From Pseudomonadota bacterium (GTDB lineage Bacteria > Pseudomonadota > Alphaproteobacteria > Acetobacterales > Acetobacteraceae), in the NCBI GenBank assembly GCA_021818505.1, contig JAKADX010000016.1, positions 1 to 64,000 on the forward strand: a stretch of DNA of 64,000 nucleotides, given 5' to 3'. The stretch's first letter is position 1, and each line of letters opens with the position of its first letter. Below the pieces are notes generated by a model. It made no database searches, had not been told where the DNA came from, and was given only the letters and a program-made list of their open reading frames with translations. A program made the position numbers and the translations under genes. Below are positions 1,430 through 36,240 of the stretch, in pieces.

Positions 1430-2908
1430 ATGCTGACCCAAGCCGCCCCGTTGCCCCTGCATGATGCCAGCCTGTTCCGTCAGACGAACTGCATCGACGG
1501 CAAATGGGTCGAGGCTGACAGCGGCCGCACCCTCACGGTGGTGAACCCGGCCACCGGCGAGGCGCTCGGCACGGTTCCCGCCATGTCGGCCGCGGAAACC
1601 CGCCGCGCCATCGAGGCCGCCAACCGCGCCCTGCCGGAGTGGCGTGCCCGCACGGCCAAGGAGCGTGCGGCAGTCCTGCGCAAGCTCTACGACCTGATGC
1701 TGGCCAACCAGGACGATCTCGCCGTCATCATGACCGCCGAGCAGGGCAAGCCGTTGGCCGAGAGCCGTGGCGAGATTCTCTACGCGGCCAGCTTCATCGA
1801 GTGGTTCGCCGAGGAGGGCAAGCGCGTCTATGGCGACGTGATCCCGCAGAACGCGCGCGGCCGGCGCATCATCGTGCAGAAGCAGCCGATCGGCGTGTTC
1901 GCCGCGATCACGCCGTGGAACTTCCCCGCCGCCATGATCACGCGCAAGACCGGCCCCGGCTGGGCCGCCGGCTGCACCGGCGTGATTCGACCCGCGAGCC
2001 AGACACCGTTTTCAGCCCTCGCGATCGCCGTGCTGGCCGAGCGCGCCGGGATGCCGCCGGGCGTGTGCAACGTCATCACCGGCCCATCGGGCGAGGTCGG
2101 CGGCGAACTCACCTCCAACCCGATCGTGCGCAAGCTGACCTTCACCGGCTCGACCGAGGTGGGTGCCAAGCTGCTCGCCCAATGCGCGCCGACCATCAAG
2201 AAGACCAGCATGGAACTGGGCGGCAACGCGCCGTTCATCGTGTTCGATGACGCCGATCTCGACGCGGCGGTGCAGGGCGCGATGTTGAGCAAGTACCGCA
2301 ACGCCGGCCAGACCTGCGTGTGCGCCAACCGCATCCTGGTGCAGGACGGCGTGTACGACGCCTTCGCCGACAAGCTGCTCGCCGCCGTCGCCAAGCTGAC
2401 GGTCGGCAACGGCATGCAGGACGGCGTGACGCAGGGGCCGCTGATCAATGCCGACGCGGTCCGCAAGGTCGAGGAGCACATCGCCGATGCGCAGGCCAAA
2501 GGCGCCAGGGTGATCGCCGGCGGCAAGCGCCATGCGCTCGGCGGCACGTTCTTCGAGCCGACAGTCCTGGTCAACGTGCCGCGCGACGCCGCGATCTTCC
2601 ACGAGGAGACGTTCGGCCCGGTGGCGCCGCTGTTCCGCTTCAAGACCGAGGAGGAGGCGGTGCGCATGGCCAACGACACCGAGTTCGGGCTTGCCGCCTA
2701 TTTCTACGCCCGCGACGTGGGGCGAATCTTCCGCGTCGCCGAGGCGCTGGAATACGGCATCGTCGGCATCAACGAGGGCATCATCTCCACCGAGGTGGCG
2801 CCGTTCGGCGGCGTGAAATCCTCTGGTCTCGGCCGCGAGGGATCGAAATACGGCATCGAGGACTATCTGGAGATCAAATACATGGCGCTCGGCGGCATCG
2901 GCACCTGA
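1430..2908 (+). CDS. gabD: NAD(P)-dependent succinate-semialdehyde dehydrogenase
   Basis: Aldehyde dehydrogenase motifs: ITPWNFPAAMITRK, FTGSTEVGAKL, MELGGNAPFIVFDDADLDAAV, NAGQTCVCANR. Confidence 0.9.
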   Translation: MLTQAAPLPLHDASLFRQTNCIDGKWVEADSGRTLTVVNPATGEALGTVPAMSAAETRRAIEAANRALPEWRARTAKERAAVLRKLYDLMLANQDDLAVIMTAEQGKPLAESRGEILYAASFIEWFAEEGKRVYGDVIPQNARGRRIIVQKQPIGVFAAITPWNFPAAMITRKTGPGWAAGCTGVIRPASQTPFSALAIAVLAERAGMPPGVCNVITGPSGEVGGELTSNPIVRKLTFTGSTEVGAKLLAQCAPTIKKTSMELGGNAPFIVFDDADLDAAVQGAMLSKYRNAGQTCVCANRILVQDGVYDAFADKLLAAVAKLTVGNGMQDGVTQGPLINADAVRKVEEHIADAQAKGARVIAGGKRHALGGTFFEPTVLVNVPRDAAIFHEETFGPVAPLFRFKTEEEAVRMANDTEFGLAAYFYARDVGRIFRVAEALEYGIVGINEGIISTEVAPFGGVKSSGLGREGSKYGIEDYLEIKYMALGGIGT

Positions 2909-5806: not shown

Positions 5807-6967
5807 ATGAGCGGGAGTGACGCCGCGTCCGACGATCTCGGCCGCGACATCGCCGCCCGCACCGACGTGTATTTCAACCGCACGCGTCAGGTGGTGATGC
5901 GCTTCGGCGACAAGCGCGTCACTTACGCCGTATTCCTCCGCCGCCCCGTCATCTCCGCCCCGCGCCTGGCGCTGGAGTGGCTCCAGCGCGTCGCGGCCGC
6001 GCGTGCGACCGAATTCGACATCGACCTGGTGCAGCCGGAGGGGGTGTGGACCGGCGCCGGCGAGCCGATTGCCTACATCACCGGCAGCCTGATGCACCTG
6101 GCGGACCTGGAAACCATCCTGCTGCAAAAGCTCGGTCCGGCCTGTGTCGCCGCGCACAACGCCTACCAGATGTCGATGGCGCTGCCGAAGATCGCCTTTC
6201 TGGCGATGGACGCGCGCCACTGCGCCGGGGCGGAGATGCAGGACATGATGGCCTATGCCGCCAGCGTCGGCAGTGCTGCGGCGCAGCGGGAGGGCGCGGT
6301 CGGCTTCGTCGGCAACGCCAATGACGGCACGGCGCACTGGTTCGGCGCCGCGGCCGGGCGCGGCACCATGCCGCACGCGCTCATTGGCTATGCGGGATCG
6401 ACGGTCCGCGCCGCCGAGATGTTCCGGGAGACTTTCCCGGACGAGCCGCTCACGGTGCTGACAGACTATTTCGGGCGCGAGATCGGCGATGGGCTGGCCG
6501 TCTGCCGCCGCTTTCCCGACCTCGCGGCGTCCGGGCGGCTCTCGGTGCGCCTCGATACGCATGGCGGGCGGTTCCTGGAGGGGCTGGATCCGGCGGAGAG
6601 CTACGCGGTGCTGGAGCGGCACGCGCCGGGCGCCATCCGCCGCTACCGCAGTGAGACCGAGCTTCGCTACCTGGTGGGCACCGGCGTCTCCGCCGCCGCA
6701 ATCTGGCGCATGCGCGAGGTGCTGGACGAGGCCGGATTTTCCACCGTGCGGATCGTGGTGAGTTCAGGTTTCAACGTCGAGAAATGCCGTGTCATGGCCG
6801 ATGCCCGCGCGCCCATCGACCTGGTCGGCACCGGCAGCTTCCTGCCTGATCTGTGGAGCGAAACCTACGCCACCGCCGACATCGTCGCCTATGACGGGAT
6901 GCCGATGGTCAAGGTCGGGCGCGAGTTCCTGCTGCGGCGCAACGGCGAGCGGCGGCGCGGCGGCTGA
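5807..6967 (+). CDS. pncB: Nicotinate phosphoribosyltransferase
   Basis: NAPRTase-like TDVYFNRTRQVV, LVGTGSFLPD, VKVGRE; strongly suggestive overall sequence. Confidence 0.8.
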   Translation: MSGSDAASDDLGRDIAARTDVYFNRTRQVVMRFGDKRVTYAVFLRRPVISAPRLALEWLQRVAAARATEFDIDLVQPEGVWTGAGEPIAYITGSLMHLADLETILLQKLGPACVAAHNAYQMSMALPKIAFLAMDARHCAGAEMQDMMAYAASVGSAAAQREGAVGFVGNANDGTAHWFGAAAGRGTMPHALIGYAGSTVRAAEMFRETFPDEPLTVLTDYFGREIGDGLAVCRRFPDLAASGRLSVRLDTHGGRFLEGLDPAESYAVLERHAPGAIRRYRSETELRYLVGTGVSAAAIWRMREVLDEAGFSTVRIVVSSGFNVEKCRVMADARAPIDLVGTGSFLPDLWSETYATADIVAYDGMPMVKVGREFLLRRNGERRRGG

Positions 6968-6988: not shown

Positions 6989-7015
6989 GCGCCGGACGGG
7001 AAACCCGTCCGGCGC
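6989..7015. terminator. Perfect 12-bp hairpin between convergent genes
   Basis: GCGCCGGACGGG-aaa-CCCGTCCGGCGC; on the minus strand it is followed by TTTG, so it probably terminates the repeat gene. Confidence 0.75.
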
Positions 7016-7049: not shown

Positions 7050-7973
7050 TCACTCGCAAGCGGAGGCCGCGGCGAACTGCGGAGCCAGCGCGGCACCGCT
7101 GTCGCTGCCACGGGCGGCAAGCTGAGCCGTGGCGGCCGCGCCGCTGACCTGGCCACGCGCGGCGAGCTGCGCGTCGGTGGATTCGCCGGTGACCTGACCG
7201 CGCGCGGCGAGCTGCGCGTCAGTGGATTCGCCGGTGACCTGACCGCGCGCCGCGAGCTGCGCGTCGGTCGATTCGCCGGTGACCTGACCGCGTGCCGCGA
7301 GCTGCGCGTCGGTGGACTCACCGGTGACCTGACCGCGTGCCGCGAGCTGGGCCGCGCCGGTGTCCTGACCACGGGCGGCAAGCTGGGCCGCGCCGGCGGC
7401 GTTGCCACGCGCGGCGAGCTGTGCCTCGGTGGATTCGCCGGTGACCTGGCCGCGTGCGGCGAGCTGCGCGTCGGTCGATTCGCCGGTGACCTGGCCGCGC
7501 GCCGCGAGCTGCGCGTCGGTGGACTCACCGGTGACCTGACCGCGTGCGGCGAGCTGCGCGTCGGTGGATTCGCCGGTGACCTGGCCGCGTGCCGCGAGCT
7601 GGGCTGCGCCGGTGTCCTGACCACGGGCGGCAAGCTGGGCCGCGCCGGCGGCGTTGCCGCGTGCGGCGAGCTGGGCCTCGGTCGATTGGCCGGTGACCTG
7701 GCCGCGTGCGGCAAGCTGGGCCGCGCCGGTGTCCTTGCCACGTGCGGCAAGCTGCGCCGCGCCGGCGGCGTTACCGCGTGCGGCGAGCTGCGCCTCAGTG
7801 GACTGGCCGGTGACTTGGCCGCGTGCGGCAAGCTCGGCCGCGCCGCTGGCATTGCCGCGCGCCGCCTGTTGCATCGGCGTGCAGGGCTTCAGGCCGCTGG
7901 CGTCCTGCGCGAACGCGCCGGCAGACACCAGCAGCGCGGCGGCGGCGCTTGCGGCCAGGAAACTGAGCTTCAT
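7050..7973 (-). CDS. Predicted secreted tandem-repeat protein (QLAARG 12/15-residue repeats)
   Basis: Signal peptide MKLSFLAASAAAALLVSAGAFAQ, then 19 consecutive repeat units; third-position variation in this frame (see findings). Confidence 0.8.
   Translation of the reverse strand: MKLSFLAASAAAALLVSAGAFAQDASGLKPCTPMQQAARGNASGAAELAARGQVTGQSTEAQLAARGNAAGAAQLAARGKDTGAAQLAARGQVTGQSTEAQLAARGNAAGAAQLAARGQDTGAAQLAARGQVTGESTDAQLAARGQVTGESTDAQLAARGQVTGESTDAQLAARGQVTGESTEAQLAARGNAAGAAQLAARGQDTGAAQLAARGQVTGESTDAQLAARGQVTGESTDAQLAARGQVTGESTDAQLAARGQVTGESTDAQLAARGQVSGAAATAQLAARGSDSGAALAPQFAAASACE
7077..7871. repeat. Tandem coding repeats of 45 bp and 36 bp
   Basis: Twelve 15-aa and seven 12-aa units counted directly in the translation. 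Confidence 0.9.
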
Positions 7974-8220
7974 GGTGACGTTCTCCGTGGGGATGAGTAT
8001 GCGCTTTAGGTTCGACGTGCCGGCCCAGCTTTCAAGCCCCGACCCCCCGGCCGTTCATCCGGGGTGAGGGGTGAGCCGATGCACAAGGGTCTCGGCACCA
8101 ACAACAGCGTTACGCAGCAGGGCGTTGTCTGGATGCAGCCGCACCCGACGCAGAGCGGACATGCACGTTTCCCGCGCCCGTCGGTGACGCTGCCACGCCG
8201 GCATTCCCGTGGGCGGCGCC

Positions 8221-9705
8221 TCAGCCCGGCGAGACGCGCAGCGCGATCCACTTCGGACCAGGAAACTTGCTGCCCTTTTCCGCCGCGCTTTTCGGCAGAA
8301 TCAGAAACATCGCGAACTTGCGGTGCGCCGCGCGCGCCCGGTCGATCTGTTCCTGGAGATCCGAGGCGCTGGCGATCGACCGATCATCGATTCGCAGGAT
8401 CAAATCACCCGCCTGCAGCCCGCGCCGCGCCGCCTCGGCGTCCTTGCGGATGCTGTTGACCATGACAGCCTGCATGTCTTTTGTGTTAGCAGGAAATGAA
8501 TTCTTTGACAGGAAATCGGCGGGCGGCGGTTGCACGCTGATGCCCAGGTCAGGCGGGATGACCCAGCGAGGCTCGGCCGCTTTGGTCGGCGCATCCCTCT
8601 CCTCCCACTGCATTTTCGGCCATTCGGCGAGCGTCACGGGCAGATCGAGCTGCTGGCCGTCGCGCAGCAGCGTGATCGTGGTCTTCTCGCCCGGCGGACT
8701 GGCCGCGATCAGGCGCAGCAGGGCGCGATCGTCGCTGGGGACCTGCTCGCCGAAGCGCAGGATCACATCGCCGATCCGCACGCCGGCGGCGGCGGCCGGG
8801 CCGCCCGCCACCACCCAGGCGACGATCGAGCCGTCGGGCTGCGCCATGCCCAGTGCCGCTGCCATCTCCGGGGTCAGGGATTGAATTTTCACGCCGAGCC
8901 ATGCGGGGCGCACCCAGCCGTAATGCAGCAGCCGCTCGATGGCGAAATGCGCGTCGTTGGAGGGAATGGCGAAGCCCAGGCCGGCCGAGGCGCTTGTGGG
9001 CGAGATCAGGGCGGTGTTGATGCCGATCACCTCGCCCTTGAGGTTGAACAGCGGCCCGCCGGAGTTGCCGTGGTTGATCGGCGCGTCGGTCTGGATGAAA
9101 TCGTCGTAGGGCGTGTCCATCAGATTGCGATTGAGCGCGCTGACGATCCCCGCCGTCACCGACAGGCCGACGCCGAGCGGGTTGCCGATCGCCAGCACCG
9201 GATCGCCGATCTGCACCTTGCCGCTGTTGCCCCACCGGACGGCGACGAGCGGATGGCCGGTATTGACCTTCAGGATGGCGATGTCGATGAGCCGCGCGGC
9301 GTTCAGCACCTCGGCGCTCGCGCGCGAGCCGTCGGCGAAGGTCACGAAGATTTCGTAGGCGCCATCGACGACATGCCAGTTGGTGACGATGACGCCGTCC
9401 GGCTGCACGACGAATCCCGACCCGGCATTCACGCGGATCTGGAATTGCTGACGCTCGTCAGCGGCCGCGGTGTCCATCGCATCGGAGGTCGGAGCGGGGA
9501 CCTGCGCGCGGGCGGTGATGTTGACGACGCTGGGGAGCAGGTTTTTCACCAGGTCAGCCTGGCTGAACATCATGCTCTGCATCATCATCATCGGCGCCGG
9601 CTGCTGCGCGCGCGCCGAGAGCGTCCCGGCCAGCACCACCCCTGCCAGCAGTGCCGCTGCCGCGGCGATCCTGCCGCAAGCAGCCGATAGCCTGACGTTG
9701 CGCAT
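8221..9705 (-). CDS. HtrA/Deg-type periplasmic serine protease with PDZ domains
   Basis: Triad contexts IVTNWHVVDGA, LIDIAILKV, INHGNSGGPLFN; PDZ-like GVRIGDVILRFGEQV and GLQAGDLILRIDD; N-terminal signal peptide. Confidence 0.93.
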   Translation of the reverse strand: MRNVRLSAACGRIAAAAALLAGVVLAGTLSARAQQPAPMMMMQSMMFSQADLVKNLLPSVVNITARAQVPAPTSDAMDTAAADERQQFQIRVNAGSGFVVQPDGVIVTNWHVVDGAYEIFVTFADGSRASAEVLNAARLIDIAILKVNTGHPLVAVRWGNSGKVQIGDPVLAIGNPLGVGLSVTAGIVSALNRNLMDTPYDDFIQTDAPINHGNSGGPLFNLKGEVIGINTALISPTSASAGLGFAIPSNDAHFAIERLLHYGWVRPAWLGVKIQSLTPEMAAALGMAQPDGSIVAWVVAGGPAAAAGVRIGDVILRFGEQVPSDDRALLRLIAASPPGEKTTITLLRDGQQLDLPVTLAEWPKMQWEERDAPTKAAEPRWVIPPDLGISVQPPPADFLSKNSFPANTKDMQAVMVNSIRKDAEAARRGLQAGDLILRIDDRSIASASDLQEQIDRARAAHRKFAMFLILPKSAAEKGSKFPGPKWIALRVSPG

Positions 9706-9851
9706 GACTCCTCCAACCGTGCCTGGATGCGGCATATGGTTCCGCAGCAGCCAAGGATAAATGCCAAGTTGCCGGACCGCCACCGGGCGGGCGTCCAGGG
9801 GGCCGGCCGGGCAAGATTGATCGGCCCGGCCTCTGCCCCTAGCTTCGCGGC

Positions 9852-13397: not shown

Positions 13398-14702
13398 TCA
13401 GGCCGGCGCCGCGGCGCCCCCGGCGGCCGGGCGTCGCGGCACCGCGCTGCCGGGGCGCACCGCCAGCGCGGCCAGTGCCGCCAGCAGGCAGAACGCGCCG
13501 GAGGCCATGAAGGCCGGCACATAGCTCGACAGCAGGTCGCGCGACACGCCGCCGCCCAGCGCCGCCACCGCCGCGCCGAGCTGATGGCCGGCGAACACCC
13601 AGCCGAACACGAGGGCCGCCCGCTCCCGCCCGAACAGTTGCGCGGACAGCCGCACCGTCGGCGGCACGGTCGCGATCCAGTCCAGGCCGTAGAACACCGC
13701 GAAGATCGTCAGCCCATAGACGGAGAAGGTCGAGAACGGCAGCGCCAGCAAGGAGAGGCCGCGCAGGCCGTAATAGGCGAACAGCAGCCTGCGCCCGTCG
13801 AAACGGTCCGACAGAATCCCAGAGCCGATGGTGCCAACGAAGTCGAATGCGCCCATCATCGCCAGCACGCTGGCCGCCGCCACCTCCGCCATCCCGAAAT
13901 CCTGGCAGAGCGGGATGAAATGCGTGCCGACCAGACCGTTGGTGGACAGGCCGCAGACGAAGAAGGTGAAGAACAGCAGCCAGAACGACGGCACGCGCCC
14001 GGCCTCGGCCAGCGTGCCGAGCGCGAGTCGCGCGGCGCCGGCGGCACGCGGCGGCGGCGGGTTGGCGATCCGCTCCCCGAAGGCCGGCAGGCCGAGTTCG
14101 CCCGGATGATCGCGGCCGAACAGCAGCATCAAGGCGCCCGCGGCAAGGCAGGCCAGGATCGCCGGCAGCAGCGCCATCCGCCAGCCATCATGCGCGGCGA
14201 GCCAGGCGGCGAGCGGCAGGAAGGCGAGCGCGCCGGTGGCGCTGCTGGCCGTCAGCATCCCGACGACGAGGCCGCGCCGCGCGGTGAACCAGCGTGTCGC
14301 GACGGTGGCGCCGAGCACCATCGCGGTCATGCCGGTGCCCAGCCCCACCAGCAGCCCCCAGCACAGCCAAAGCTGCCACAGCGCCGTCATCCGGGTCGCC
14401 AGCCCCAGCCCGGCGACGATCAGCAGCATCGCCGCCAGCACCGTCGCGCGTAGCCCGTGGCGCTGCAGCAGCGCCGCCGCGAACGGCGCCATCGCGCCAT
14501 ACAGCACCAGCCGCAGCGCCAGTGCGCCGGAGATGTCGCCGGTGCTCCAGCCGAACTCGGCGGAGAGCGGGCGGATCAGCACGCCCGGCATCCCCATCGC
14601 CGCCGCGGTCGCCAGCATCACCAGGAAGGTCGCTGCCGCCACCGCCCAGCCGTAATGGACGCCGCGGCGGGCGAAGGCGGGGGCGAGCATCTTGGCGAGC
14701 AT
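13398..14702 (-). CDS. MFS transporter
   Basis: 12-TM hydrophobic pattern, FARRGVHYGWAVAAATFLVML start, GSGILSDRFDGRRLLF. Confidence 0.88.
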   Translation of the reverse strand: MLAKMLAPAFARRGVHYGWAVAAATFLVMLATAAAMGMPGVLIRPLSAEFGWSTGDISGALALRLVLYGAMAPFAAALLQRHGLRATVLAAMLLIVAGLGLATRMTALWQLWLCWGLLVGLGTGMTAMVLGATVATRWFTARRGLVVGMLTASSATGALAFLPLAAWLAAHDGWRMALLPAILACLAAGALMLLFGRDHPGELGLPAFGERIANPPPPRAAGAARLALGTLAEAGRVPSFWLLFFTFFVCGLSTNGLVGTHFIPLCQDFGMAEVAAASVLAMMGAFDFVGTIGSGILSDRFDGRRLLFAYYGLRGLSLLALPFSTFSVYGLTIFAVFYGLDWIATVPPTVRLSAQLFGRERAALVFGWVFAGHQLGAAVAALGGGVSRDLLSSYVPAFMASGAFCLLAALAALAVRPGSAVPRRPAAGGAAAPA

Positions 14703-14844
14703 GACCGATCCTTCATCCGGGACCCGGGACGATGGGTGCGCAAGGCGCGATCGACAACCTCCGGAATTTCAGCGCAGCCGCGCAACCGCGCGGCGGTTGC
14801 CTCCGTTCGGTGACCGCCACCCCATGCGTGGAGGAGACGGGGCG

Positions 14845-15345
14845 ATGAAGACGATGAACGATGCCTGCCTGAACATGCTGCAGGACATCTATTATGCCGA
14901 GCGGCAGATCCTGAAGGCGCTGCCGAAGATGGCGAAGGCGGCCGAGAGCGAGAAACTCCGGCAGAGCTTCCTCAAGCACCGCGAGGAAACCGAGCACCAG
15001 GTCGAGCGCCTGCAACAGGTGTTCGAGCACATGGGCAAGCGCGCCCGCGGCCAGACCTGCGAGGCGATCAACGGCATCATCGAGGAAGGCGAGGAATTCG
15101 CGAGCGATTACGAGAAAGGCCCGGTGCTGGACGCGGCCCTGGCCGCCAACGCGCAGGCGGTCGAGCACTACGAGATGGCGCGCTACGGCACGCTGATCGC
15201 GTGGTTCAGGGCCACCGGCATGACCGAGCCCGTGCGCCTGCTGGAGCAGACGTTGGCGGAGGAGAAGCAGGCCGACCACCTGCTGACCGAGATCGCCACC
15301 GCCGAGTTGAACCAGAAGGCCGCGCAGGTCGCCAAGGCGGCCTGA
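14845..15345 (+). CDS. Ferritin-like YciE/YciF (DUF892) family protein
   Basis: LQDIYYAERQILKALPKMAKAA, HREETEHQVERLQQVF, AVEHYEMARYGTLIAWF. Confidence 0.93.
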   Translation: MKTMNDACLNMLQDIYYAERQILKALPKMAKAAESEKLRQSFLKHREETEHQVERLQQVFEHMGKRARGQTCEAINGIIEEGEEFASDYEKGPVLDAALAANAQAVEHYEMARYGTLIAWFRATGMTEPVRLLEQTLAEEKQADHLLTEIATAELNQKAAQVAKAA

Positions 15346-16165: not shown

Positions 16166-16261
16166 GGGATTTCACCTGTCGGGCGGTGGGTGCGATCGCG
16201 GGACCGTGGGATCGTCGGTTCGGCCGATCCAGGTGCGCCCGGTTCCAGCCTGTGCTATCGG

Positions 16262-16289
16262 GGTTCCGAATTGGAGCAGATTCGGAACC
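16262..16289. promoter_or_regulatory. Perfect palindrome abutting the antitoxin start codon (candidate autoregulatory operator)
   Basis: GGTTCCGAAT-tggagcag-ATTCGGAACC, ending 2 bp before the ATG at 16291. Confidence 0.65.
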
Positions 16290-16290
16290 G

Positions 16291-16527
16291 ATGCCCGTCA
16301 ACCTGTCGATCAAGAACGCCCCTGACGAGGTGGTCCGGCGCCTGCGGCTGCGGGCGGAGCGGCATCACCGCTCGCTGCAAGGCGAACTGCTCGCCATCAT
16401 CGAGGAGGCGGTCCAGCCCGAACGCGAACTGACCCCGGCCGAGTTGCTGGCGGAAGTCCGGCGCCTCGGCTTGCGTACGCCGGCCGAGTCGGCCGCCATC
16501 ATCCGGGCCGACCGTGACCGGCGTTAA
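16291..16527 (+). CDS. FitA/Arc-type ribbon-helix-helix antitoxin
   Basis: MPVNLSIKNAPDEVVRRLRLRAERHHRSLQGELLAIIEEAV; overlaps the PIN toxin by 14 bp. Confidence 0.85.
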   Translation: MPVNLSIKNAPDEVVRRLRLRAERHHRSLQGELLAIIEEAVQPERELTPAELLAEVRRLGLRTPAESAAIIRADRDRR

Positions 16528-16888
16528 GGTGGTGGACGCCTCGGCGCTCGCCGCCCTGCTGTTCGCCGAGCCGGAGGCGGAGGCGATCGCGCAGCGGCTG
16601 GAGGGTGCGCGTCTGGCGGCACCGTCCCTGCTCGGCTTCGAACTGGCCAATGTCTGCCTCACCAAGCTGCGCCGCCATCCGGCGCAGCGCGACAGCCTGC
16701 GCGCCGCCTTCCGCCTCGCCGGCCGGCTGGCGGTGGAGACGGTCGCGGTCGATCACGCGGCGACGCTCGACCTCGCCGAGGCGACGGGGCTGACCGCCTA
16801 TGATGCGTGCTACCTGTGGCTCGCCCGTGCGCTTGGCGGCGAACTGGTGACGCTCGACCGGAAGCTGGCGGCGGCCACATCACGTTAG
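16514..16888 (+). CDS. PIN-domain toxin (VapC/FitB-type)
   Basis: VVDASALAALLF...EPEAEAIAQRLEG, FELANVCLTKL, LTAYDACYLWLARALGGELVTLDRKL. Confidence 0.9.
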   Translation: MTGVKVVDASALAALLFAEPEAEAIAQRLEGARLAAPSLLGFELANVCLTKLRRHPAQRDSLRAAFRLAGRLAVETVAVDHAATLDLAEATGLTAYDACYLWLARALGGELVTLDRKLAAATSR

Positions 16889-17985: not shown

Positions 17986-18026
17986 TGCGGCACAGTAGGC
18001 TGATGATGGCGGCGAACCGCAGGTCG

Positions 18027-18098
18027 GGGTGGGAAGGGGAAGCGGGGACGCGAACGAAAAGAGAACACATCCGGCTTGACCTGGGCAAAGACGATCTT
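18027..18098. repeat. Dispersed intergenic repeat, copy B
   Basis: ggggtgggaaggggaagcggggacgcgaacgaaaagagaacacatccggcttgacctgggcaaaga. Confidence 0.65.
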
Positions 18099-18273
18099 TC
18101 GGTGGGTGGGTCTCGGTATGAAATTTCCCGGTATGCGGTAGCACCGGCCGCAAGCGGCACGCCGCACCGGTCGCCAGATTTCGTGGTTGGGAGTCGGCGG
18201 GAAGCGCTTGTTCGTCGCGAGAGCGTGAGTTTCCCCGTAGCGGGCGCTGGGGAGTCTGCATACGCTGGTCGGT

Positions 18274-19110
18274 ATGGCCCCCAACCATCGACGAGCGGCA
18301 CGAGAGGCAGCGCTTAGACCGTCAGAGACAGAGACTCTCGAACGTGGGCGCGTTGCGCATTGGCTCCGCTGGGATCACCTCAATTGGTGGGTTGCATTCA
18401 TTCCTGGCGTCCCCGGAGCAGTTCTAATGGCCGCTGGGGAATATGGCTTAGGCGAGATTAGCCTCGGGATAGCGTCGCTGATATTCAGTGTCAGTGTATT
18501 AACGTGGAAAGTGAATGGGTTAGTTAAGTTATGGATCATCATAGGATTGTTTGTGGCCAGTTTGTTTGTGATCGCCACAGTAGACTATGACCGATATCAG
18601 CAGAAACTTGCGGCATATGAGGGAGACCTGATTGCGGCAGATGAGCCAGATCCGCCTACTCACTGTCCAAGTTATTACACTGGAAAATATAGAATTTATA
18701 TGGGGGACAGCGCAATAATAACAGATATCGCGCAAACGGCATTGGTAGTGATAAAAGGAAAGGTAATGCTTTCCATATCTAAGAATAGATCTAATAGTGC
18801 GTTGCAGATATCGCTAAAAATATTCGATCCGTCATTGCATATATTAGCAGAAATCGAGAATAATCATTACACTATTTCATCTGGTATCTTCCGCAAAAAA
18901 CAGAACGATCTGAGTGGATTTACCTTGACAGACCAGTATGATCATGAAGTATTGCGTATTAGATACCTCAATCAGCACTCATTCATGTTGACCGGCAGTC
19001 TCATGTACATGGCCGGAATTGAAATAACGGATGGGCATATGTTCATATTTCCCAACCGACTTGATATATCTCAATTTTGCTCCGCTGGCGGAAAGATCGT
19101 AATCAATTAA
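18274..19110 (+). CDS. Hypothetical two-TM membrane protein, AT-rich
   Basis: TM segments around VAFIPGVPGAVLMAAGEYG and LVKLWIIIGLFVASLFVIATV, then a hydrophilic domain; composition markedly AT-richer than flanks. Confidence 0.7.
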   Translation: MAPNHRRAAREAALRPSETETLERGRVAHWLRWDHLNWWVAFIPGVPGAVLMAAGEYGLGEISLGIASLIFSVSVLTWKVNGLVKLWIIIGLFVASLFVIATVDYDRYQQKLAAYEGDLIAADEPDPPTHCPSYYTGKYRIYMGDSAIITDIAQTALVVIKGKVMLSISKNRSNSALQISLKIFDPSLHILAEIENNHYTISSGIFRKKQNDLSGFTLTDQYDHEVLRIRYLNQHSFMLTGSLMYMAGIEITDGHMFIFPNRLDISQFCSAGGKIVIN

Positions 19111-19259
19111 AGGTCTTCCAGCCGCATCCTCTCCATTTCCAGCGAAGTTAGCACTGCGAGAAAGCCATGCGTACGGCGGGAAAAGGGCAGCGCATTCCAC
19201 CACGTTCTCGCGCCCGTTTGCCTGTGCCGGTTGGTTCGGCACCGTGCCGGCGCCAGACG

Positions 19260-19364
19260 CGCATGGCGCACTGCGTCCACGTGGGTGATGAGCAGCCGGG
19301 AGCGGCGGTCGGGCAGGTTCACGGTGAAGAAGGAGGTCCCGCCAGGGACACGATTGCGCCGGTC
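19260..19364 (-). pseudogene. Remnant of a REP-associated tyrosine transposase (RAYT/IS200-like)
   Basis: DRRNRVPGGTSFFTVNLPDRRSRLLITHVDAVRHA matches the RAYT N-terminus style YRRxRVPGGTYFFTVNLxxRRSxLL; no intact downstream catalytic part. Confidence 0.65.
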
Positions 19365-19506
19365 GTGGGCGTGCGCGGAGACGCTGTCGTCTTGGAGTGC
19401 GGCGGAATGCGCGGCGCTCTTCCGCCCGCTGATTCCGGGAGAAGTGGGGCGTAACAAGGCAGGGAGCGGGAAATATCAGCACCGCATGGTAAAAGCTTTG
19501 GCGACA

Positions 19507-20133
19507 TCATGGTGAATCGTCTAAGTGCCGATAGCCTCGTTCCCCGGATTCAACGCCTACAGCAAGTTCAGTAGGTTTAATAGGGTTAGAGGAAAGTTGA
19601 TTGACCGCGCTCTTGGTAACCGGCAGGTTAAGGATGGGCTCGATTCTCGGTCTTTCCACTGGCCGCCTCAGTGTCCGGTGCGTTCCCCTCTCTCGTTCGC
19701 TCTTTGTTGCCCGATAAGATGGCAGTATACCTGCCCCAGGAAGCGGAAACTCACCGGCGTCACGACGTAGTTTCGCGATCTCAAGTCGTAGTTTTTCTTC
19801 CTGCAAGGGCCAGAGTTTTACCTTCTCGACAATTTGCAACGTCGTCCACACGGCTCCTATCCCGGCAAATACGGTGCCGAGAATCAAAAGCCCTGGTGAC
19901 GCGAACCGGATACGCGGGATGCGGAGTTGGTATGCCTTCGGAACCCGGAAACTGTTCCGCCCATAGCCACCGTAGCTTGCCTCATCCAGTTCGTAGGGGT
20001 CCTGCTCAACCTTGAAGGCAACGGCGTAGAGCCGGTTGATGTCAAAAAGGAAAGCAGAAAGGTCGAGAACAGCAATTGGCTGCGCCTCTGCAAACCAAAG
20101 GGTGAGCGTTACTCTCTTGTCCTCGGATGGCAT
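19507..20133 (-). CDS. Hypothetical protein with one TM segment
   Basis: MPSEDKRVTLTLWFAEAQPIAVLDLSAFLFDINRLYAVAFKVEQDPYEL..., TM FASPGLLILGTVFAGIGAVWTTLQIV. Confidence 0.6.
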   Translation of the reverse strand: MPSEDKRVTLTLWFAEAQPIAVLDLSAFLFDINRLYAVAFKVEQDPYELDEASYGGYGRNSFRVPKAYQLRIPRIRFASPGLLILGTVFAGIGAVWTTLQIVEKVKLWPLQEEKLRLEIAKLRRDAGEFPLPGAGILPSYRATKSERERGTHRTLRRPVERPRIEPILNLPVTKSAVNQLSSNPIKPTELAVGVESGERGYRHLDDSP

Positions 20134-20378
20134 TGGTTCCCCCGACGCATCGCAGGCGGACCGGACCACAAGCGCAAGGAGGGTCGCAAGAGGGGATGTA
20201 TGCCAGCAAGCGCGGCAAGCGTAACCCGGATTCCCGGCACGCCGGCGGGCAGGCGCAACCCGCCGACGCAACTTGCCGCTTGCGCACCACGACGTCGTTC
20301 CGCCCCGTCGCCGGCCGGCTTACCAAGGCGGATTGCATCCGGCCCACGCTTGCTGCGGCTTTCCCGCCGTGCGCCTGC

Positions 20379-35742: not shown

Positions 35743-36240
35743 ATGAAGCTCTCGCCGCGTCTGGCACTGTTCTGCTCCGGTCTGGCGGCCGCGCTCGCGC
35801 TCGGTGTGGCGTTCGCGGCGGAGTGGTGGGGCGGGCTGGTACCGTGCCCGCTCTGCCTGCTGGAACGCTGGCCGTACCGGGTCGCGATCGCGGTCGCCGC
35901 ACTCGGCCTGCTGCTGCCGCGGCGGGGCGCGCGGGTGGCGCTGGTCCTGGTGCTGCTGATCGGGCTGGCGGAGGTGGGGCTGGCCGGGCTGCATGTCGGC
36001 GTCGAGTGGCACGCCTGGCCCAGCCCGCTGCCGGAATGCGCCGCGCCGCGCTACCGGGGCGGCAGTATTGCCCAGCGGCTGCGCGCCATGCCGGCGCGCC
36101 CATCGAAATCCTGCGAGGAGGGCGTCTATCCCGTGCCCGGCCTGCCGGTTTCATTCGCCGAACTGAATCTGCTTTATGCTGCGGCGTTTTCCGCCGCCAT
36201 CGGCGCGTCGCTGGTGCGCGCAGGCAGGAGGACCGCATGA
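35743..36240 (+). CDS. dsbB: Disulfide bond formation protein B family
   Basis: WWGGLVPCPLCLLERWPYRVAIA (CxxC), second Cys pair, 4 TM. Confidence 0.88.
   Translation: MKLSPRLALFCSGLAAALALGVAFAAEWWGGLVPCPLCLLERWPYRVAIAVAALGLLLPRRGARVALVLVLLIGLAEVGLAGLHVGVEWHAWPSPLPECAAPRYRGGSIAQRLRAMPARPSKSCEEGVYPVPGLPVSFAELNLLYAAAFSAAIGASLVRAGRRTA

What the first reader, a model, noticed from the sequence alone, without database searches (positions are those of the whole stretch)
7050..7973. Secreted protein built almost entirely from QLAARG 12/15-residue tandem repeats
Seen directly: after a signal peptide, the 307-aa minus-strand product is 19 back-to-back units plus a degenerate last one. Twelve are 15-mers (mostly QLAARGQVTGESTDA) and seven are 12-mers (QLAARGNAAGAA or QLAARGQDTGAA/KDTGAA). 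The only two cysteines flank the array (LKPC near the mature N-terminus, SACE at the C-terminus), so a terminus-to-terminus disulfide is conceivable. I recognise no family for it. Function (surface/periplasmic scaffold, adhesin, matrix or stress protein) is unknown.
Basis: partly seen in the sequence, partly recalled or inferred. Interest (0 to 1): 0.75.

Follow-up and report, generated by a model that had tools for sequence, protein, structure and literature searches.

The report
HtrA-linked exported QLA-repeat protein family
This is a real, exported bacterial protein made of 19 near-identical short repeats between two conserved cysteines; it belongs to a small undescribed family found in only three related genera, and its gene nearly always sits beside genes for a special group of HtrA quality-control proteases, which gives the first clue to what it does.

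Summary
It matches no curated family. It is nevertheless not an orphan: relatives occur in all nine sampled genomes of three related genera and in no other genome searched. Across them the repeat spacer has been replaced wholesale (QVTGESTDA, NSSGQPDSV, SKAGNNDAGANA, KSVSEQTAPNA). What stays fixed is a QLA motif every 12-15 residues, an N-terminal Cys near mature residue 9 and a penultimate C-terminal Cys. Units differ mainly at silent sites (pN/pS 0.27-0.30). At 8 of 8 readable loci of the main gene, one to three tandem genes of a distinct, catalytically intact HtrA/DegP-like subfamily lie directly upstream; two short non-repetitive relatives also follow such an HtrA. Best explanation: an exported, flexible, disulfide-capable, multivalent QLA-motif ligand or regulator of its neighbouring HtrA. 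Export signal, caps, family and linkage are shown by sequence; HtrA binding, the disulfide and flexibility are inferred. AlphaFold2 is contradictory (disorder or beta-solenoid), and it is known to invent beta-solenoids for repeats.

The parts
7050..7973 (-). Gene of the repeat protein (307 aa, ATG at 7973, stop codon 7052-7050)
   Evidence: single copy in the genome
7908..7973 (-). Signal peptide MKLSFLAASAAAALLVSAGAFA, cleavage expected before QD
   Evidence: AxA-type site conserved in relatives; SignalP not available
7872..7907 (-). N-cap QDASGLKPCTPM with the first conserved Cys (residue 31, codon 7883-7881)
   Evidence: P30 and C31 columns invariant in A2, 12 sequences
7080..7871 (-). Array of 19 units: twelve 15-mers, seven 12-mers (QLAARG + variable spacer)
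7053..7079 (-). C-cap QFAAASACE with the second conserved Cys (residue 306, codon 7058-7056)
   Evidence: Cys-[Glu/Gln]-stop end in all repeat-bearing relatives whose C-end is assembled and that carry the caps
7981..7986 (-). Ribosome-binding-site-like GGAGAA
   Evidence: GGAGA upstream of most relatives
8008..8036 (-). Conserved promoter-like block CTTGAAA ... CGAACCT (own promoter probable; sigma factor not identified)
   Evidence: same block in four congeners, TGAA core in all eight HtrA-linked main genes; no sigma-70 consensus match
6989..7015 (-). Intrinsic-terminator-like hairpin after the gene
   Evidence: the number found is not above the shuffled expectation, but it is a 12-bp stem directly after the gene
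8221..9705 (-). HtrA/DegP-like protease (Trypsin_2 + two PDZ), catalytic motifs present; ATG at 9705 likelier than GTG at 9783
5807..6967 (+). Convergent gene with QRPTase_N match, nicotinate phosphoribosyltransferase-like (marks the orthologous locus; not thought part of the system)

Best explanation
An exported, lineage-restricted partner of the HtrA/DegP-like protease(s) encoded directly upstream. After signal-peptide removal the mature chain (about 285 aa, one aromatic residue, Ala/Gly/Gln-rich) stays largely flexible. Its two cysteines, one nine residues from the N-end and one penultimate at the C-end, are probably oxidised by the Dsb system to close the chain end-to-end or to link chains. 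The conserved QLA motif, repeated every 12-15 residues on interchangeable spacers, would act as a multivalent short linear motif that engages the HtrA oligomer (PDZ domains or substrate groove), so that it tunes protease/chaperone activity in the cell envelope or tethers clients to it. Shown by sequence: export signal, caps, array, selection on the protein, HtrA-gene linkage. Inferred: flexibility, disulfide, HtrA binding, regulatory effect.
For: Linkage: an HtrA lies directly upstream at 8 of 8 readable loci of the main gene in three genera (G000-G003, G031, G141, G112, G175), as 1-3 tandem HtrAs. Two short, non-repetitive relatives (53-54 aa mature, two Cys) also directly follow an HtrA of the same subfamily (G001:C44, G003:C398). 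The HtrA subfamily is discrete: 457 bits or more against at most 338 for all other HtrAs, found in 8 of 120 surveyed genomes, 6 of which have the repeat protein. Catalytic motifs are present in nearly all copies. Motif: Q1 and A3 of QLA are invariant and L2 is present in 11 of 13 unit consensuses, while no spacer column is fixed. Two cysteines at matched places in every complete capped relative; DsbB in 8 of 9 genomes including this one. Selection: pN/pS 0.27-0.30. [quoted passage not shown]
Against: Linkage is not proof of interaction, and most loci are related by descent, so they are not independent. Paralogues exist away from HtrA (G001:C34, G004:C259, G031:C19), and a second, Cys-less repeat gene follows the main one in G031:C94. 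HtrAs of the subfamily also occur without a partner (G000:C7, G004:C226, G079, G093). The unit has no paired hydrophobic residues, which DegP prefers to cut (PMC11642142), so a pure-substrate role is unlikely. A 247-bp gap, a separate promoter-like block and a terminator suggest that the two genes are not simply co-transcribed. No binding or structure data exist.
Confidence: 0.4

Rival explanations
1. Structural spacer or cross-linker of the envelope: a flexible chain with a reactive cysteine at each end that forms disulfide loops or end-to-end polymers; the repeat only sets the length.
For: Cys at both extreme ends in all complete capped members, one at mature position 5-10 and one penultimate, despite mature lengths of 90 to 285 residues; spacer sequence freely replaced.
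Against: Does not explain the fixed QLA motif nor the HtrA neighbourhood; short relatives (53-54 aa) would be poor spacers.
Confidence: 0.22
2. General envelope stress shield (hydrophilin-like): a disordered, soluble chain that prevents aggregation under acid, metal or desiccation stress, co-selected with HtrA but not binding it.
For: Gly about 12-16% in the repeat-rich members of genera g1 and g28, almost no aromatics, some members on the disordered side of the charge-hydropathy plot; the neighbour is a stress-type protease.
Against: The window's own protein misses the hydrophilin hydrophilicity criterion (0.33; more than 1 is needed) and falls on the folded side of the charge-hydropathy line; Gly is only 1% in the g109 array fragment.
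Confidence: 0.18
3. Folded beta-solenoid, each 12-15-residue unit one coil, serving as a surface, adhesive or ice/mineral-binding rod closed by the terminal cysteines.
For: AF2 with a 6-row alignment gives regular 15-residue beta coils, pLDDT 70-80 at residues 210-280, pTM 0.45.
Against: Single-sequence AF2 gives helices and coil at pLDDT 49; AF2 gives confident but false beta-solenoids for random repeats (PMC11795689); no PDB fold match (best E 0.16); 12- and 15-mers are mixed in one array and most spacers have no hydrophobic residue.
Confidence: 0.1
4. Polyprotein-like precursor: HtrA cuts at the QLA motif and releases many copies of a species-specific 12-15-residue peptide.
For: Fixed motif, species-specific and internally homogenised spacer, adjacent proteases.
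Against: I know of no precedent for HtrA as such a processing enzyme; the short relatives carry no repeated peptide; homogenised arrays arise anyway by unequal crossing-over.
Confidence: 0.07

Closest known systems
HtrA/DegP (Do family) proteases and their activating ligands
   Same: The upstream gene has Trypsin_2 plus two PDZ domains and a complete triad; best NCBIfam hit is degP_htrA_DO (377.9 bits)
   Different: Falls below that family's curated cut-off (416.2 bits); forms a separate subfamily; classical DegP loci carry no repeat protein as far as I know (own knowledge)
Hydrophilins / LEA-like stress proteins
   Same: Low-complexity, Gly-rich in g1 and g28 members, soluble, short repeats
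   Different: No Pfam match to such families; hydrophilicity criterion not met by the window's protein; exported, with two Cys
Beta-solenoid antifreeze and surface repeat proteins
   Same: 12- and 15-residue units; AF2 with an alignment draws a solenoid
   Different: No significant fold match, mixed unit length, scarce hydrophobics; AF2 is unreliable here (PMC11795689)
HdeA/HdeB acid-activated periplasmic chaperones (own knowledge, functional analogy only)
   Same: Small exported proteins with two cysteines, envelope stress
   Different: HdeA is folded and not repetitive; no sequence match

Membership tests
Do/DegP HtrA family (for the neighbour P0002) | Trypsin-like domain with intact His-Asp-Ser triad | tested here: met
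   PF13365 E 2.6e-34; TNWHVV, LIDIAIL and GNSGGP motifs in the translation
Do/DegP HtrA family (for the neighbour P0002) | Two PDZ domains | tested here: met
   PDZ matches at about 296-385 and 437-480
Do/DegP HtrA family (for the neighbour P0002) | Score above the curated TIGR02037 cut-off | tested here: not met
   377.9 against 416.2 bits; hence called HtrA/DegP-like, not filed as DegP
Hydrophilin | Gly above 6% | tested here: met
   13.7%
Hydrophilin | Hydrophilicity index above 1 | tested here: not met
   0.33 on minus Kyte-Doolittle
Any described repeat family (Pfam, NCBIfam, PHROGs, PDB) | Match over curated cut-off | tested here: not met
   Best Pfam Glutenin_hmw 19.9 bits against 50; HAF repeat 13.2 against 22.65; a weak PHROG of unknown function; no PDB sequence match
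Beta-solenoid protein | Confident, reproducible solenoid fold | tested here: inconclusive
   Two AF2 runs disagree; no fold match
QLA-repeat family as defined here | Signal peptide, Cys near the mature N-end, penultimate C-terminal Cys, QLA-spaced units of 12-15 aa | tested here: met

The most novel reading that the evidence does not exclude
A dedicated regulator class for HtrA proteases: an exported, disulfide-closed, disordered polymer of short linear motifs whose valency (repeat number) and spacer evolve freely while the motif and caps stay fixed, setting the assembly or activity of tandem HtrA proteases.
Probability: 0.2. Interest if true: 0.8.

Novelty: new variant of a known kind. Interest (0 to 1): 0.55.

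Why it matters
HtrA proteases guard the bacterial envelope and are mostly thought to be switched on by damaged proteins themselves. A co-inherited, repeat-built partner would be a new layer of control. It is also a clean natural case in which almost every residue of a repeat has been replaced between genera except one three-residue motif and two cysteines, which tells an experimenter exactly which residues to test.

Tried and rejected
Curated families: no match over cut-off in Pfam or NCBIfam, only a weak unknown PHROG, nothing in PDB. A genome-contig scan with the repeat protein found nothing, and the first alignment was too divergent for that tool. Plasmid collection: none. No relatives in 395 genomes drawn across the class, apart from the own genome. 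Heat-shock (RpoH-type) reading of the CTTGAAA block: groES genes of these genomes have a CIRCE-like inverted repeat and a TTGACA-type promoter instead; the hsp20 windows I took mostly covered coding sequence, so that half is inconclusive and the sigma factor stays unidentified. Antisense or non-coding array: rejected because homologues share signal peptide and caps in the sense frame. A hit in G031:C168 proved to be an unrelated GQLVGR repeat at the end of another protein and was dropped. Habitat: relatives are metagenome bins (ZJ1, LL2, MAS3, ZJ5, SCN18, a moss bin); acid mine drainage was suspected from the names but could not be confirmed. HtrA tree poorly resolved and not used.

Full report
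OBSERVATION. Window 7973-7050 on the minus strand encodes 307 aa: signal peptide, N-cap QDASGLKPCTPM, 19 units (twelve 15-mers, seven 12-mers), tail QFAAASACE. Cys occur only at residues 31 and 306. TRF scores the array at up to 988, while nothing else in the window exceeds 59. The units differ mostly at silent sites (pN/pS 0.27 for 15-mers, 0.30 for 12-mers; 1.9-2.2 in shifted sense frames), as expected of a protein under selection. One antisense frame gives 0.34, so this test alone does not fix the strand; homology does.

A FAMILY, NOT AN ORPHAN. The own genome has one copy. All four congeners sampled have the gene at the orthologous place (for G004 only the C-terminal end beside the phosphoribosyltransferase is assembled), and relatives occur in both sampled genomes of two further genera of the same taxonomic family. 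It was found in no other of 300 family-level genomes and in no other genome of 395 drawn across the class. Sensitivity is limited for a low-complexity family, so very diverged members elsewhere may be missed. A named-genome scan with the neighbouring HtrA returned uncultured bins, among them one Acetobacteraceae bin with a related HtrA, so the group is probably in or near Acetobacteraceae; this was not verified.

WHAT IS CONSERVED. Unit consensuses: QLAARGQVTGESTDA here; QLAARGNSSGQPDSV, QLAARGNDSGAPPAS, QLAARGNDTGKSDAA and QLAARGNASGAPPDS in congeners; QLASKAGNNDAGANA and QLASQAGDRKDGA in genus g28; QLAKSVSEQTAPNA and QLAASVKETTAPNA in g109. In 13 consensuses Q1 and A3 are invariant, L2 is in 11, and no other column is fixed. 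Every complete capped member has exactly two Cys, one near the mature N-end and one penultimate, at mature lengths from 90 to 285 aa. Two short relatives (53-54 aa mature) have two Cys but no array; they may resemble the ancestral form.

NEIGHBOURHOOD. The gene directly upstream, 247 bp away on the same strand, is an HtrA-like protease with two PDZ domains. A survey of 120 genomes separates a discrete subfamily (457 bits or more; G000-G004, G031, G079, G093) from all other HtrAs (at most 338 bits). The subfamily HtrA lies directly upstream of the main repeat gene at 8 of 8 loci where that side is assembled, as one to three tandem copies, and directly upstream of both short relatives. Catalytic motifs are present in nearly all copies; a few do not fit the simple pattern used or are truncated. 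Downstream lies a nicotinate phosphoribosyltransferase-like gene in g1, in G031 and in G112; an array tail in G175 is instead followed by a GSDH-domain gene. The HtrA-repeat pair may therefore exist in two contexts, but contigs break in the array there. The HtrA tree is poorly resolved and was not used for argument. Exceptions: three paralogues without HtrA beside them, one Cys-less second repeat gene in G031, and several partnerless HtrAs.

EXPRESSION SIGNALS. A GGAGAA ribosome-binding-like site, a block CTTGAAA...CGAACCT conserved among four congeners and a terminator-like hairpin suggest an own transcription unit. The sigma factor is unknown; comparison with groES upstream regions did not support a heat-shock reading.

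STRUCTURE. AF2 on the single sequence: pLDDT 49, pTM 0.16. AF2 with six homologues: beta-solenoid, pLDDT 53 overall, 70-80 locally, pTM 0.45, without significant PDB neighbours. AF2 makes confident but unrealistic beta-solenoids from repeats, some of them predicted to be disordered (PMC11795689). Mixed 12/15-mers and the lack of hydrophobics in most spacers favour disorder, but charge-hydropathy is split among members, so the question stays open.

MECHANISM. Best supported: exported partner of the adjacent HtrA acting through repeated QLA motifs. DegP is activated by ligands bridging a PDZ domain and an active site (PMC11642142), so multivalency is a sensible way to influence such an enzyme. 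A plain substrate is less likely, since DegP prefers paired hydrophobics and the unit has none. Two Cys at the ends plus DsbB in 8 of 9 genomes make a disulfide plausible. Interaction, disulfide and effect are untested. Rivals: end-to-end cross-linker, stress shield, solenoid rod, peptide precursor.

NOVELTY. No described family fits. I rate it a new variant of a known kind (an HtrA locus with an undescribed secreted repeat partner), with a possible new regulator class as the ambitious reading.

Noticed in passing
window 16186-16888 (+): FitA-like ribbon-helix-helix antitoxin followed by a PIN-domain protein (FitAB/VapBC-type toxin-antitoxin pair).
   Followed up: partly
window 14692-15345 (+): DUF892 (YciF-like) gene.
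   Followed up: partly
window 18001-20000: GC drops to 0.54 in a 0.65-0.74 background; two ORFs there (18274-19110 +, 19507-20271 -) have no Pfam match: possible acquired island.
   Followed up: partly
window 35758-36201 (+): A DsbB disulfide-bond gene lies in the same window.
   Followed up: no
G000:C7:38415-39860 (L062): Second HtrA of the same subfamily in the own genome, followed by an IHF-alpha-like and a MerR-like gene, with no repeat partner.
   Followed up: partly
L031 1498-2040 (-), same place in L070 (G031:C94): A second, Cys-less repeat protein (QLASRAGNNDAGASA units) sits between the main repeat gene and the phosphoribosyltransferase-like gene: an array without caps.
   Followed up: partly
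L087, L091 (CAJCJG01 records): Records titled Solirubrobacterales bacterium 70-9 have the same contig numbers and lengths as G031, which groups with this family: the record title looks wrong.
   Followed up: no
L003, L004, L008, L009, L014, L021-L023, L108, L109: Contigs of six relatives end inside the array, so such genes are probably broken or missed in public short-read assemblies, and repeat numbers are lower bounds.
   Followed up: no
L016 (G031:C168) 1495-2076 (-): An unrelated protein ends in a perfect GQLVGR hexapeptide tandem repeat.
   Followed up: no
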